Shown here: one piece after another, positions 9,663 through 23,600 of the stretch | Numbering within the stretch: position 1 is the stretch's first letter | Layout of the letters: every line of letters begins with the position of its first letter | Origin: a virus | DNA length: 44,229 nt | IMG/VR virus record: IMGVR_UViG_3300031999_000052 | Location: 1 to 44,229 of that record | Direction: 5' to 3' (one strand) | Translations under genes and position numbers: made by a program | The notes under the pieces: generated by a model | Told to the model about the DNA's origin: nothing | What the model saw: only the letters and a program-made list of their open reading frames with translations | The model's database searches: none

Positions 9663-10964
9663 TTAATTTTTCTTTTTCTTATCCAAATCTTTAAACAACC
9701 ATTTATTTACTAAATATGGATTTAAAGACGATACGCTATTTGGTGAAATCATGGGTTTATTTTTAAAACCCTTATTTTTTTCAATTTCTTTAATATCATT
9801 AATAGTGATAATTGAATTAAGCATTTTTTCGGTAATTCCTTTACTTTGTTTAAATCTTGCCATATCAAAATTTAATACATATAAACCAATTGATAATCCC
9901 ATAATTGAATCATCATGGAATGAACGTTTATGATCAGCAACACGATTGCCAGCAATTGTAATAAAAGTTTTTAATTCATTTAATAATCTCATTGATCTAA
10001 TAATAACATCTTCCAAATGAATTGCTCTTTGCATTTCAAGAAGAACAGATGCACGATTATTACCAATGAAAAATCCGGGAATTAAATCTACATTAACCAC
10101 CGCACCGTCTGCCATTGTTTTTTGTCCTTTTTTAATATATCCTTGTAATCTGTCTCTTGATGGTTTATGTGTTACTTCTGCATAATGAATATTTTCATAA
10201 CCAAATTCAAGCATTTTTTCTATAGTTTGTACACCATAACCGCCAGTAATATCAACTACACAATATGCATTATTATATCGTTTACCATATTGATATGCAA
10301 TTTCTGCAAGCATTTGAGGTGTTATTTTACCATAATATTCAGCAACTTGTTCAACTTTATGTCTTTTTATTTTAACTTTTTTTACTTTTTCGCCTTTTAT
10401 AATTATTTTTTCTTCAATAATTTCAATGGTTTTTAAAATATTAGCCGTTGAATTATCTTCACCATGTCCGGGTGATGCATCCAATGCAATAATATAATCT
10501 TCACCAGCAATTGAGTCTTCAAAAATCCACATATTTTTATCAATATATTCCTGACGTATTGGAACTTTGATTTCATATTCTTCAATACGTTTTAGATATT
10601 CTTCGGCAATAAAATTATCTCCAGAACCCAAAAAGCTACAATTATGATTTAAAAAACCATTTGCAAAATATTCACAATCTTTAGAATCTACAATATCGTA
10701 GAATTCATGTTCACCCACAATTTCCACAGATTTCACATAAAAATCACCTTCGGTTGTTGTAATATATGCTACATTGGGAACTAATGATTTAGCATACATA
10801 TCAACACCATTAGCTAAAAATATGTGGTCTTCACTTACAATTATTGAAAAATTATTTTCTAATGTTATTTTATAACCAACATTTTTAAATAATTTTTCAA
10901 TTCCAAGAAAATCAACAAATTCGCCAGAATTATTTAAAATTTCGTATTCTGTATTTATTAACAT
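9663..10964 (-). CDS. 17: Terminase large subunit, C-terminal half with C-intein
   Basis: A 433-aa protein. Residues 1-108 are a C-intein: a block-B-like IIVSEDHIF (41-49), a block-F-like EFYDIVDSKDCEYFANG and the terminal FLNHN, directly followed by Cys109, the +1 extein nucleophile. Residues 109-433 are the gp17 nuclease half (CSFLGSGDNFIAEEY; acidic residues in ALDASPG, VVDITGGYG and HDDSIMGLSIG). The ATG overlaps the stop of the upstream half by 7 nt (ATGTTAA), so translation is probably coupled. Trans-splicing with the N-half should rebuild a normal terminase. The C-intein resembles the atypically split AceL-TerL intein in length, position and start. Confidence 0.92.
   Translation of the reverse strand: MLINTEYEILNNSGEFVDFLGIEKLFKNVGYKITLENNFSIIVSEDHIFLANGVDMYAKSLVPNVAYITTTEGDFYVKSVEIVGEHEFYDIVDSKDCEYFANGFLNHNCSFLGSGDNFIAEEYLKRIEEYEIKVPIRQEYIDKNMWIFEDSIAGEDYIIALDASPGHGEDNSTANILKTIEIIEEKIIIKGEKVKKVKIKRHKVEQVAEYYGKITPQMLAEIAYQYGKRYNNAYCVVDITGGYGVQTIEKMLEFGYENIHYAEVTHKPSRDRLQGYIKKGQKTMADGAVVNVDLIPGFFIGNNRASVLLEMQRAIHLEDVIIRSMRLLNELKTFITIAGNRVADHKRSFHDDSIMGLSIGLYVLNFDMARFKQSKGITEKMLNSIITINDIKEIEKNKGFKNKPMISPNSVSSLNPYLVNKWLFKDLDKKKKN
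10641..10964 (-). other. C-intein (IntC), 108 aa
   Basis: Codes for the C-terminal splicing part, ending in His-Asn before Cys+1. It contains block B, so the break lies between blocks A and B rather than at the common endonuclease position. Confidence 0.88.
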
Positions 10965-12121
10965 GTTAAAAATTTAACACATTCATTGATTATTTTTAAA
11001 TCTTTTTTGTTTCTATTATATTCATCGGAAGTTATTATTTTAATATTATAACCCATTTCATTAATTATTTTATATCTTTTTTCATCATTTCTTGATGAAT
11101 GCCAATAATTACCATTATATTCAATAACATTATTTCCTTGTTTAAAATCAAACATCATTACTGTTTTATCATAAAAATATTCTGATGGTATTTTTAAAAC
11201 ATATTCTTGATTTAAATCGTGGAAATAAATACCCTCTTTATTTTTCAATCGTTCATAGATTTTCCAAAATAATTCTTGCGAAATTACACTAAATTTATTG
11301 GCTTTTAATTGTGATAATTTATTCATTTTCTTTTCAACACAATCTTCATATTTTATTATACCCGTTGTATTACCATATTTTCTAATAAACCATTCCTTAC
11401 TATTTGTTTTTATTTTTCGTAATTTTTCTTTTCTTTTATTCATATGTGTTTCCCATCCATCTCCATATTTTTTAAAAAACCATTCTTTTGAAGGATATTT
11501 GGGATTACATTTTGAGCATAAAATTATTACTTCATTATTTATCATTTTCCAATGTTTTAACTTTTTATGAATTTCACAATAAATGTTAATTTTATTAACA
11601 AAAAAGAATAATCTATAAGAAAATTTATTTAAATTTTTATTAAGTGTATTAAATTCTTGTGTATAAAAGTATAGACTTAAATATAATCTTTTATCATCAT
11701 TTAATAATCTTCTATTACCCGATTTACCAAAATATTTTTTATAGTTATTTTTAAGTAATTCTCTTGTTTGTTCCTTATTATATAAATTTTTAATTTTATT
11801 TAATTCATTATGACAAATATTCCATTGTTTCTGTGCCGAATTTATATTTGCTTCTTTAAAACATTTATATTTCTTTTCAAAAATTAATATTTTATTATCT
11901 TTTTTTATTAAATTAATGTCGCCATTGTAATTTATAAGATATTTTATTTTAGCTTCTAAAATTTTATTTGAATGATATACTTGCATATCATAAGTATATA
12001 TATTAATAAGACTTAATAGATTTGGAAAATCTTTATTAAACTTTGATGTACCACCTTTTATAAAATACTGTTCAATGTTTTTAACCAATTTTAAAATTTT
12101 AATTAAAATATTTTTATCCAT
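10958..12121 (-). CDS. Possible free-standing Vsr-like homing endonuclease from an internal start
   Basis: In-frame ATG at codon 410 of the terminase N-half. It is directly preceded by a 7-bp inverted repeat that contains a late-type promoter box. Starting here gives a 387-aa protein containing only the linker and endonuclease parts, separate from the intein. The C-terminal core (IEYNGNYWHS, then a Lys/Arg-rich helix and YNIKIITSDEYNRN) resembles the Vsr-like nucleases described in fractured split-intein genes. The internal start is inferred from the regulatory signals. Confidence 0.55.
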   Translation of the reverse strand: MDKNILIKILKLVKNIEQYFIKGGTSKFNKDFPNLLSLINIYTYDMQVYHSNKILEAKIKYLINYNGDINLIKKDNKILIFEKKYKCFKEANINSAQKQWNICHNELNKIKNLYNKEQTRELLKNNYKKYFGKSGNRRLLNDDKRLYLSLYFYTQEFNTLNKNLNKFSYRLFFFVNKINIYCEIHKKLKHWKMINNEVIILCSKCNPKYPSKEWFFKKYGDGWETHMNKRKEKLRKIKTNSKEWFIRKYGNTTGIIKYEDCVEKKMNKLSQLKANKFSVISQELFWKIYERLKNKEGIYFHDLNQEYVLKIPSEYFYDKTVMMFDFKQGNNVIEYNGNYWHSSRNDEKRYKIINEMGYNIKIITSDEYNRNKKDLKIINECVKFLTC

Positions 12122-13348
12122 GAGTATTGTATTTTTAGATAAATACTCACAAGAATTGTTTTGTTCTTCGAACTTTTTATATAAATCTGAAATTTTAATA
12201 TTTTCAATAATATCGTTTTTTTTATTCCTAATTGTTATAACTGCATCACCAAAAATACATAAAAGTTCCTGTGCGATCTTACGCATATCACCATTTGCAT
12301 TTCGAATTTGTTCTTCAAACCAAGGTGAACTGGCTTCCCATCCATCATCCATTAGTTGAATTCTTTTTTTATTGTCCCAATTTTCATCAATTAATCTAAT
12401 TTCAGTTTCTTTTCCTTTATTTTTTAACCAAACCAAATCTTTATTATATCTTGGGTCATTAAACCACCACAATTCAACTGCTTTAAAATTATTTTCATTA
12501 TTTCTTGCACCAATAAATGTTTTATAGAAAACCGCATCTAAGCCGGATGGTGTGCTAACCATAATTGCAGCACCACCTGTTTGTAATGTTGGTTGTGCTG
12601 ATGTCCAGAATTTATCGCCTTTTTCAGTCCATGCTGTTTCATCCCAGAATAATAATGTTGGAGTATAACCACGAAGACCTTTTGATGAAAAAGCACCTAA
12701 AGATGAACCATTATCATATCTTTTTAATTTTTGAGTATCTTTAAAATTACCCTTATTAGTATCTCTACCTGTTTTAGGTCTTAACCATTCAGGACAACTA
12801 TCAATAAAATCAACAGAATCATTCATCATTTCATCACGAGCAGTTTCCAATTTATCGGCAACAATAGCAACACTTCTGTTTTCATTAAACATTACGTACC
12901 ACGCAATAAATGCACAAGTTGTTGTTGAAACACCACCCTGACGATATTTATTAGCAATAACAAATCTTTCTTCCATATAAGTTTTAATCAAATCCTTTTG
13001 AAAATCAAAAAAAATAAATGGAACAATCATACCTGCTTTGCCTTTAGTTTGGTCAAAAATTGTTAAATATGTTTCAATGAAATAAATTGGATTAGTTGCA
13101 CAATGAACAATTTCATATTCTTGTTCGACAAGTGTTAATTCACTTGCTTTTTTTGCAATACCATCTTTTGTAACAATAATCGGTTCAATTTTTCCAGATT
13201 TTTTTCGAAGTTCAATTGCTCGTTTTCTGGCTTCTTCTTTTTCTCTTTCTTTTTGAATATCGAATGGAATAACGGGTATGTGTTCTGGAAATAATGATTC
13301 ATCTTTATCTTTATCGGGAGTAATATCTAAATTTGTGTTGATACTCAT
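10958..13348 (-). CDS. 17: Terminase large subunit N-half, N-intein and Vsr-like endonuclease in one frame
   Basis: A 796-aa protein. Residues 1-363 are the gp17 ATPase half: a variant Walker A, NKYRQGGVSTTT (133-144), and Walker B, LLFWDETAW (232-240). Cys364 starts a short N-intein (CIFGDAVITIRN, then ISDLYKKF) of about 33 residues. The frame then stays open for 400 more codons. This part has a Cys-rich patch (YCEIH...CSKC), two WFxxKYG-type repeats and a C-terminal Vsr/EDxHD-like core around VIEYNGNYWHSSRNDEKR. Splicing must remove the whole tail in trans with the downstream gene. Whether the endonuclease works as a fusion or mainly from an internal start is open. Confidence 0.9.
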   Translation of the reverse strand: MSINTNLDITPDKDKDESLFPEHIPVIPFDIQKEREKEEARKRAIELRKKSGKIEPIIVTKDGIAKKASELTLVEQEYEIVHCATNPIYFIETYLTIFDQTKGKAGMIVPFIFFDFQKDLIKTYMEERFVIANKYRQGGVSTTTCAFIAWYVMFNENRSVAIVADKLETARDEMMNDSVDFIDSCPEWLRPKTGRDTNKGNFKDTQKLKRYDNGSSLGAFSSKGLRGYTPTLLFWDETAWTEKGDKFWTSAQPTLQTGGAAIMVSTPSGLDAVFYKTFIGARNNENNFKAVELWWFNDPRYNKDLVWLKNKGKETEIRLIDENWDNKKRIQLMDDGWEASSPWFEEQIRNANGDMRKIAQELLCIFGDAVITIRNKKNDIIENIKISDLYKKFEEQNNSCEYLSKNTILMDKNILIKILKLVKNIEQYFIKGGTSKFNKDFPNLLSLINIYTYDMQVYHSNKILEAKIKYLINYNGDINLIKKDNKILIFEKKYKCFKEANINSAQKQWNICHNELNKIKNLYNKEQTRELLKNNYKKYFGKSGNRRLLNDDKRLYLSLYFYTQEFNTLNKNLNKFSYRLFFFVNKINIYCEIHKKLKHWKMINNEVIILCSKCNPKYPSKEWFFKKYGDGWETHMNKRKEKLRKIKTNSKEWFIRKYGNTTGIIKYEDCVEKKMNKLSQLKANKFSVISQELFWKIYERLKNKEGIYFHDLNQEYVLKIPSEYFYDKTVMMFDFKQGNNVIEYNGNYWHSSRNDEKRYKIINEMGYNIKIITSDEYNRNKKDLKIINECVKFLTC
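12122..12148 (-). promoter_or_regulatory. Hairpin plus late-type box just before the internal endonuclease start
   Basis: Perfect inverted repeat GAGTATT/AATACTC with a 13-nt loop, abutting the ATG at 12121. The 5' arm and loop contain AGTATTTATC (12138-12147), the late-type box, 16 nt before that ATG. On long transcripts the hairpin would lie over the start region; transcripts begun at the box would lack the 5' arm. Confidence 0.6.
12158..12259 (-). other. N-intein (IntN), about 33 aa
   Basis: Begins with Cys364 after extein residues AQELL and shows block A only (CIFGDAVITI, KISDLYKKF). Very similar in form to the 25-residue AceL-TerL N-intein. The 3' limit is approximate because the frame continues into linker. 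Confidence 0.85.
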
Positions 13349-13364
13349 TTATAAATATTTATAA

Positions 13365-13372
13365 TAAATACT
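13365..13372 (-). promoter_or_regulatory. Late-type box before the terminase gene
   Basis: Sense AGTATTTA, followed by a second partial TATTTATAA; 16 nt before the ATG at 13348. Confidence 0.55.
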
Positions 13373-23006: not shown

Positions 23007-23600
23007 ATGAAAGAAATAATTGAAAATTCCAAATCATTACGAGAAGTATCCATACAATATTTTGGATACATCAACGTAATTACATATTCGAAAATAAGAA
23101 AGTTCATCGTTACGAATAATATCGACACAACTCATTTTATTAAGAATGTATCAGCGTTTAATCATACTAAATATCCGAAAATAATAAAAACATGCCCTAT
23201 ATGTGGAAATGGGTTTGAAACGAAATCTGGTCATCCAAGAGAAAAAACTGTCTGTTCACATTCATGTGCAAATACTTTTTATCGGACTGGAACAGAACAT
23301 CCTAATCATAAAAAAGATGATGATTTAAATGGAGAAACAAAACATAGAATCATTTGTTTTAGATATCACAAGAAAAAATGTGTTTGTTGTGAAGAAGAAA
23401 ATATAGTAGAAGCACATCATTACGATGGAAACAAAAAAAATAATGCTCCTGCAAACTTAGTTCCGCTATGTCCAACACATCATCGTTATTGGCATAGTAG
23501 ATTCAGACATATTGTTAAAACGAAGATTGATGAATATGTAAAAAATTTTATTTCAGGTGTTGATCGAGAGGTTAAAGATGCTGGCTTTGGAAACCAGTGA
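23007..23600 (+). CDS. HNH homing-type endonuclease 1, 3' end inside a tRNA gene
   Basis: 197 aa. An N-terminal helical region is followed by a zinc finger CPICGNGF...VCSHSCANTFY (about 69-97) and an HNH core CVCCEEENIVEAHH...LVPLCPTHHRYWH (about 125-165). Free-standing nuclease with no intein or intron signs; probably a mobile gene. Its last 16 codons lie within the tRNA at 23554, with the stop in the anticodon stem. HNH gene 2 at the right end shares the finger motif (CSxxCANxF), the promoter layout and the tRNA overlap. Confidence 0.85.
   Translation: MKEIIENSKSLREVSIQYFGYINVITYSKIRKFIVTNNIDTTHFIKNVSAFNHTKYPKIIKTCPICGNGFETKSGHPREKTVCSHSCANTFYRTGTEHPNHKKDDDLNGETKHRIICFRYHKKKCVCCEEENIVEAHHYDGNKKNNAPANLVPLCPTHHRYWHSRFRHIVKTKIDEYVKNFISGVDREVKDAGFGNQ

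What the first reader, a model, noticed from the sequence alone, without database searches (positions are those of the whole stretch)
10958..12259. Homing endonuclease fused in frame to the N-intein, with its own promoter and hairpin at an internal start
Seen: the reading frame does not stop after the N-intein but runs through a non-conserved linker into a Vsr-like nuclease. In that linker a 7-bp inverted repeat (GAGTATT/AATACTC) carrying the late-type box abuts an in-frame ATG at 12121. Known: in T4, intron endonucleases such as I-TevI are kept silent on read-through messages by a hairpin and are expressed from an internal late promoter. Inference: the same control logic evolved here inside a split intein.
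Basis: partly seen in the sequence, partly recalled or inferred. Interest (0 to 1): 0.82.

Follow-up and report, generated by a model that had tools for sequence, protein, structure and literature searches.

The report
Late-promoter endonuclease inside a split intein
In a large phage, a selfish DNA-cutting gene sits inside the split gene for the DNA-packaging motor and appears to carry its own late switch (promoter, RNA hairpin and a copy of its own target site), much like the switch of the unrelated phage T4 intron endonucleases.

Summary
In detail: a 796-aa minus-strand frame joins TerL-N, an N-intein and a 387-aa Vsr-like endonuclease (HEG). An in-frame ATG at 12121 lies 25 nt below GTATTTAT, inside a TGAGTATT/AATACTCA hairpin.

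The promoter claim is strong. GTATTTAT is the dominant start-proximal motif in this phage and its relatives (usual spacing 22-25 nt). At the internal start it is invariant in 15 lineages with an intact HEG, mutated in both lineages that lost the HEG, and conserved at a third codon position and across stop codons.

The hairpin is weak as a single case but belongs to a class: box-spanning hairpins over the start codon mark HEGs, not other box genes, in this phage group (p = 7e-6).

One correction: in W the HEG is fused, so a hairpin cannot silence it on read-through mRNA; it can only gate the internal start. The control did not arise at this locus; the fusion is the derived step, seen in two clades.

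Verdict: new variant of fractured-gene split inteins with T4-like HEG control. No experiment exists.

The parts
12260..13348 (-). TerL (T4 gp17-like) N-extein, ATPase part
   Evidence: Terminase_6N over cut-off, E 4e-10; phrog_5989 terminase large subunit, E 1e-30
12140..12259 (-). N-intein, 40 codons from Cys1 (CIFGDAVITI...) to the tail ...NNSCEYL
   Evidence: Block A only; the same intein is contiguous in L027, L028, L030
12148..12170 (+). Homing-site-like stretch, inverted relative to TerL, abutting the box; candidate operator
   Evidence: 17/23 to the consensus of 23 distinct intein-less TerL sites; PWM 19.7, 2.8e-6 per window; same register in nearly all lineages. Function inferred
12139..12146 (-). 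Late-type box GTATTTAT, 25 nt before ATG 12121
12121..12149 (-). Hairpin TGAGTATT / AATACTCA, 13-nt loop region, covering the A of the start codon
   Evidence: -8.9 kcal/mol, z about -3; class effect among HEGs
12122..12139 (-). Non-conserved linker SKNTIL between N-intein and HEG
10958..12121 (-). Vsr-like homing endonuclease, 387 aa, internal start ATG 12121
   Evidence: M1 invariant in 15 relatives
10961..11296 (-). Catalytic domain of the HEG (model residues 276-387)
   Evidence: VIA-align Z 9.6 to I-Bth0305I 3r3p, Z 8.1 to Vsr 1vsr; invariant D325, E334, H341
10958..10964 (-). Overlap ATGTTAA: stop of the fusion/HEG and start of the C-part (translational coupling inferred)
   Evidence: Sequence; overlap kept in most relatives
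10641..10964 (-). C-intein, 108 aa, blocks B, F, G, ending HN before Cys+1
   Evidence: Profile match to gp41-1 intein 6qaz E 2.5e-8
9663..10640 (-). TerL C-extein (nuclease part)
13364..13371 (-). GTATTTAT box of TerL itself, 23 nt before its ATG

Best explanation
This is a mobile, atypically split TerL intein whose Vsr-like homing endonuclease is made in two ways. (1) Late mRNA from the TerL box is translated as TerL-N/IntN/HEG, and translation couples through the ATGTTAA overlap to IntC/TerL-C; trans-splicing then yields TerL plus an IntN-HEG by-product. (2) A late-type promoter (GTATTTAT, 12146-12139) buried in the end of the N-intein starts a short mRNA from which the free 387-aa HEG is initiated at ATG 12121. 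On longer mRNAs the sequence upstream of that start folds back on the start codon and limits internal initiation. The inverted homing-site-like stretch (12170-12148) beside the box is a likely operator by which the HEG shuts off its own promoter. Shown by sequence: anatomy, box motif and conservation, hairpin class effect, homing-site similarity, empty target sites. Inferred: transcription start, gating, autorepression, cleavage, splicing. Rough step probabilities: promoter 0.85, internal start used 0.75, fusion also made 0.65, hairpin function here 0.5, operator function 0.45.
For: Box: 31 copies in the window against 6.3 by chance, not reached in 100 shuffles. It or its one-base shifts lead the enriched 8-mers at -32..-14 in the window and four of five relatives' records, spacing mostly 22-25 nt. 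It stands at 0 of 97 starts within 20 nt of a same-strand gene and at 53 of 200 others, which fits a promoter rather than a ribosome site. Internal site: 15-25 nt before the invariant M1 in all 15 intact-HEG lineages, changed to GTTTTTAT in both HEG-deleted lineages L009 and L013. DNA-level constraint: the codon before Tyr-Leu varies (E, M, A, V, T) but always ends in G, used in about 7-11% of such codons (Met aside), and the last T holds across sense and stop codons. Hairpin: 22 other HEGs mean z -2.8 against -0.2 for 50 non-HEG box genes, p 7e-6; TerL-intein HEGs p 0.002; the window site is more stable than all 50. Split-intein HEGs L103, L108, L109, L114, L116 and L143 have other arms but the same layout. 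The same pipeline recovers T4 I-TevII: box at -26, z -3.4. Homing-site-like stretch. Mobility: intein-less TerL sites. Nuclease.
Against: No transcript or protein data. The hairpin arms break in L010 and L091 (about 60% HEG identity) and several lineages show no hairpin. In W the hairpin lies in a translated frame. No gp55-like late sigma factor was found by sequence (inconclusive). The homing-site-like stretch persists in L009 and L013 after HEG loss, and synonymous-codon controls show that the tail peptide in AT-rich codons already gives the match, so selection on it as DNA is not shown. No Shine-Dalgarno is visible before 12121. The lineages are related, so counts are not independent.
Confidence: 0.6

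Rival explanations
1. Only the fusion is made. The HEG acts as an IntN-HEG by-product of splicing; box, hairpin and homing-site-like stretch are relics from ancestors in which the HEG was a separate gene.
For: The frame is open in eight lineages of two clades with frame-keeping spacing of 22 or 25 nt, while free-standing lineages vary between 15 and 23. The hairpin is not conserved among fused relatives.
Against: The box is intact in all eight fused lineages while the linker next to it has diverged, and M1 is invariant. A relic should have decayed, as the box did in L009 and L013.
Confidence: 0.17
2. The internal box is real but serves the TerL C-part: it supplies extra mRNA for IntC/TerL-C downstream, and the HEG is a passenger on it.
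For: The C-part has no box of its own within 40 nt and is coupled to the HEG stop.
Against: In L009 and L013 the gene is still split, the HEG is gone and the box is mutated. Box-to-start spacing fits the HEG start as it does other genes.
Confidence: 0.1
3. The homing-site-like stretch is not an operator but a scar or coincidence: either the HEG once invaded the intein at a sequence resembling its target, or the tail peptide happens to be written in similar AT-rich codons.
For: Synonymous-codon null gives 13-34% of draws at least as good; the stretch persists after HEG loss in L009 and L013; weak in L012.
Against: Score far above 705,374 background windows in many lineages, at a fixed position beside the promoter, the place where I-TevI has its operator.
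Confidence: 0.45
4. The window hairpin is a chance fold of AT-rich sequence with no role.
For: 7-bp repeats are common in this ORF, 5% of windows fold as well; arms not conserved in L010, L091.
Against: More stable than all 50 non-HEG box starts; HEG class effect p 7e-6, repeated with a fixed window, p 3e-7; distant split-intein HEGs share the layout.
Confidence: 0.4

Closest known systems
I-TevI / I-TevII / I-TevIII control in T4 introns (review PMC2988022)
   Same: Internal late promoter close to the HEG start, hairpin that forms only on longer mRNA, homing-site-like operator at the promoter; I-TevII box at -26 and hairpin z -3.4 in our own pipeline
   Different: GIY-YIG enzymes in RNA introns; here a Vsr-like enzyme in a protein intein, inside a translated frame, other box sequence, no visible Shine-Dalgarno, candidate operator inverted and abutting the box
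Fractured genes: split inteins with a HEG between the halves (Dassa et al. 2009, cited in PMC10448857; paper itself not held)
   Same: Host gene split at an intein, HEG between halves, Vsr-like nuclease (the last from own knowledge of that paper)
   Different: HEG fused in frame to the N-intein, with an internal late-type promoter in the N-intein tail
Atypically split TerL inteins (AceL-TerL, GOS-TerL; PMC13014065)
   Same: TerL host, short IntN and long IntC, Cys nucleophile
   Different: IntN 40 codons with tail, continues into a HEG
I-Bth0305I / Vsr-like homing endonucleases
   Same: Catalytic domain fold and sequence
   Different: N-terminal about 270 residues without a solved relative found; intein-borne
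PX29 gp17B (GIY-YIG HEG with C-intein) and Vibrio phage Va1 terminase
   Same: HEG fused to one half of a split TerL intein
   Different: Fusion on the C-intein side; here on the N-intein side

Membership tests
Fractured gene with split intein | Two separate frames carrying complementary intein halves at one conserved site | tested here: met
Fractured gene with split intein | HEG as a separate gene between the halves | tested here: not met
   Fused in frame in W; separate in L002, L014 and others
Fractured gene with split intein | Protein trans-splicing | not testable with these tools
   Splice residues Cys1, His-Asn and Cys+1 present
Atypically split TerL intein | Split near the N-terminus, short IntN (15-37 aa reported), long IntC | tested here: met
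   IntN about 35-40 aa with tail, IntC 108 aa aligned to gp41-1 residues 34-128
Vsr-like homing endonuclease (I-Bth0305I) | Vsr/EDxHD-type catalytic fold | tested here: met
   3r3p E 0.0013, Z 9.6; 1vsr Z 8.1
Vsr-like homing endonuclease (I-Bth0305I) | Cleaves the intein-less allele | not testable with these tools
   Empty sites exist; cleavage unknown
I-TevI-type HEG control | Internal late promoter next to the HEG start | tested here: met
   By motif and conservation only
I-TevI-type HEG control | Hairpin sequestering the start on longer mRNA only | tested here: inconclusive
   Present in W and as a class among HEGs; not conserved in L010, L091
I-TevI-type HEG control | HEG silent on read-through mRNA | tested here: not met
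   Open fused frame in W
I-TevI-type HEG control | Homing-site-like operator at the promoter | tested here: inconclusive
   Similarity present; binding and nucleotide-level selection not shown
T4 late promoter | TATAAATA box and gp55 sigma factor | tested here: inconclusive
   Box is GTATTTAT; gp55 not found by sequence in partial records

The most novel reading that the evidence does not exclude
The tail of the N-intein is a dual-code segment: as protein it ends the splicing half, and as DNA it holds the HEG's late promoter plus an inverted operator resembling the homing site. A Vsr-like HEG in a protein intein has thus converged on the three-part control of T4 intron HEGs, and fusion to the N-intein gives a second, splicing-released form of the enzyme.
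Probability: 0.35. Interest if true: 0.78.

Novelty: new variant of a known kind. Interest (0 to 1): 0.64.

Why it matters
How intein-borne endonucleases are timed and limited is little studied, since they are normally co-translated with an essential protein. Here one locus exists in free, fused and deleted states, with a promoter box that tracks the presence of the HEG, so the question becomes directly testable. That box-spanning, start-covering hairpins mark HEGs of several nuclease families in one phage group suggests that the T4 control logic is a general solution and not a T4 peculiarity. It also gives a sequence rule for spotting HEGs and internal promoters in uncultured phages.

Tried and rejected
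(a) DNA similarity to isolated phages: none. (b) Protein-level conservation of Tyr-Leu as the reason for the box: rejected by the invariant third-position G and by the T kept across sense and stop codons. (c) The box as a ribosome-binding or translation element: disfavoured, absent from tightly packed genes. (d) A conserved hairpin sequence in the TerL-intein HEGs: not found. (e) T4 gp55 homologue: not found, inconclusive. (f) Operator-like match in distant split-intein HEGs: not significant in L103, sites not located in L108-L116. (g) A C-intein profile scan for more lineages gave no new informative ones. (h) Direct-orientation match of promoter region to homing site: not significant. (i) Literature searches for late promoters or autorepression in split-intein HEGs: nothing beyond the T4 review. 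(j) Foldseek alone gave only E 0.14 for I-Bth0305I; the Vsr-like call rests.

Full report
WHAT IS THERE. On the minus strand, ORF 13348-10958 (796 aa) joins the TerL ATPase part (Terminase_6N over cut-off), an N-intein beginning with Cys at 12259, and a 387-aa nuclease starting at an in-frame ATG at 12121. The next ORF (10964-9663) starts inside the HEG stop (ATGTTAA) and carries a 108-aa C-intein and the TerL nuclease part. The C-intein profile matches the gp41-1 intein (E 2.5e-8) and weakly CatC. Relatives L027, L028 and L030 hold the same intein as one contiguous 143-147-aa mini-intein without HEG, and intein-less TerL relatives (23 distinct sites) show the uninterrupted site. So this is a mobile intein allele, split at the 'atypical' position near its N-terminus, as in the AceL and GOS TerL inteins (PMC13014065).

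THE NUCLEASE. A profile of 15 relatives matches one plausible solved structure, the I-Bth0305I catalytic domain 3r3p (E 0.0013). The AlphaFold model (mean pLDDT 81.5) aligns over residues 276-387 to 3r3p (Z 9.6, 2.1 A over 89 residues) and to E. coli Vsr (Z 8.1). M1 is invariant in all 15 aligned sequences, whether the HEG is fused or free.

FUSED OR FREE. Eight lineages have the HEG fused in frame (W, L003, L006, L010, L019, L022, L023, L091). Seven others have a stop at the box or just after it and a separate HEG (L002, L012, L014, L016, L018, L021, L026). L009 and L013 have lost most of the HEG. On the HEG tree the fused state falls in two clades and needs two changes. Outgroup HEGs are free, so fusion is probably derived, although one origin with a loss is not excluded. 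Spacing from box to ATG is 22 or 25 nt in all fused lineages, keeping frame, but 15 to 23 in free ones. Fusions on the other side, to the C-intein, exist in isolates: GIY-YIG in Aeromonas phage PX29 and a Vsr-like HEG in Vibrio phage Va1.

THE PROMOTER BOX. GTATTTAT occurs 31 times in the window against 6.3 expected. Counting 8-mers before gene starts without prior choice puts GTATTTAT or its one-base shifts at the top in the window and in four of five other phage records of the group, with spacing mostly 22-25 nt; the fifth (G002, 15 genes) is too small to rank it. None of 97 starts lying within 20 nt of a same-strand gene has it, against 53 of 200 others. The internal box, at -25, is intact in all 15 intact-HEG lineages and reads GTTTTTAT in both HEG-deleted ones (1 in 136 by label shuffling, ignoring relatedness). 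It is held as DNA: the codon before Tyr-Leu varies (E, M, A, V, T) but always ends in G, a base used in about 7-11% of such codons (Met aside), and the T after TTA is kept whether it begins a sense codon or a stop.

THE HAIRPIN. The stem TGAGTATT/AATACTCA (12149-12121) covers the start (mean unpaired probability 0.13; -8.9 kcal/mol; z about -3). Alone it is not remarkable, and it is not conserved in L010 or L091. But in this phage group it belongs to a class. Among genes with the box, 22 homing endonucleases (GIY-YIG, HNH and a DUF7487 protein) have mean z -2.8 against -0.2 for 50 other box genes (p 7e-6). The 15 TerL-intein HEGs also differ from those 50 (p 0.002), and the window site is more stable than every one of the 50. 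The class was first noticed because the strongest hairpins turned out to be HEGs; the comparison was then extended with HEGs found by Pfam search and repeated with a fixed 61-nt window (p 3e-7). HEG labels for a few proteins (such as L162:11413 and L167:18558) rest on inspection and not on a Pfam cut-off, and not every box gene was scanned. More distant split-intein HEGs (L103, L108, L109, L114, L116, L143) show the same layout with different arms; L111 does not. The same pipeline recovers the published arrangement for T4 I-TevII: late box at -26, hairpin z -3.4.

THE HOMING-SITE-LIKE STRETCH. The 23 bp beside the box (12170-12148), read on the opposite strand, resemble the TerL insertion site from -14 to +9: CACAAGAATTGTTTTGTTCTTCG in W against consensus CACAGGAATTATTATGTTCATTC (17/23; about 3e-6 per window). 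Relatives reach 19-20/23 at the same register, above nearly all of 705,374 background windows. L012 is weak (14/23). In W the match to its own, diverged site is only 14/23. I-TevI has a 15/20 match between operator and homing site at its late promoter and represses itself there (PMC2988022). Two cautions: the tail peptide (FEEQNNSCE) in AT-rich codons gives the match anyway, and the stretch survives in L009 and L013. So similarity is shown, operator function is not; a scar of HEG invasion is an alternative.

MECHANISM. The most likely picture has two products. Late mRNA from the TerL box makes the fusion, and splicing releases TerL and IntN-HEG. The internal promoter makes a short mRNA for the free HEG, and the operator-like stretch would limit it once the enzyme accumulates. 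The hairpin can reduce initiation at 12121 on long mRNA only; it cannot silence the HEG domain in the fused frame.

STATUS. All of this rests on sequence. The lineages are related and counts are not independent events. No 5' end, protein, binding or splicing data exist. The key paper on fractured genes (Dassa et al. 2009) is not held in the library, so statements on it rest on citations and own knowledge.

Noticed in passing
L166:9593-10243(-), L162:11413-11961(+), L166:15246-15974(-), L169:11783-12409(+), L162:8742-9470(+), L166:4518-4973(-), L167:16444-17130(-): Free-standing HNH and GIY-YIG type endonucleases with very stable hairpins enclosing GTATTTAT, most of them covering the start codon: T4-like HEG control as a group-wide feature.
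   Followed up: yes
window, 31 sites: GTATTTAT is probably the late promoter of this phage group, 22-25 nt before the ATG as a rule. The sigma factor is unknown.
   Followed up: partly
L009 and L013: HEG deleted from the split intein, box mutated to the same GTTTTTAT in both, split TerL retained: natural knock-outs of the element.
   Followed up: partly
L013, L027, L028: TerL N-part or whole frame is about 450 aa longer than in relatives, suggesting a second intein or insertion upstream in TerL.
   Followed up: no
window:43169-43837 and 23007-23600: Two HNH-type endonuclease genes (weak family matches); the first has a box at 43146 but no strong hairpin.
   Followed up: partly
window:13390-13427: Strong GC-rich inverted repeat (GGGAGCGGTACAT / ATGTATCGCTCCC) between TerL and the upstream gene, likely a terminator.
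   Followed up: no
window:11225-11232: A second sense-strand GTATTTAT inside the HEG coding region, conservation not examined; probably chance.
   Followed up: no
L122:3866-5941: Vsr-like HEG homologue in a 692-aa frame continuing downstream, possibly fused to a C-intein as in Vibrio phage Va1.
   Followed up: no
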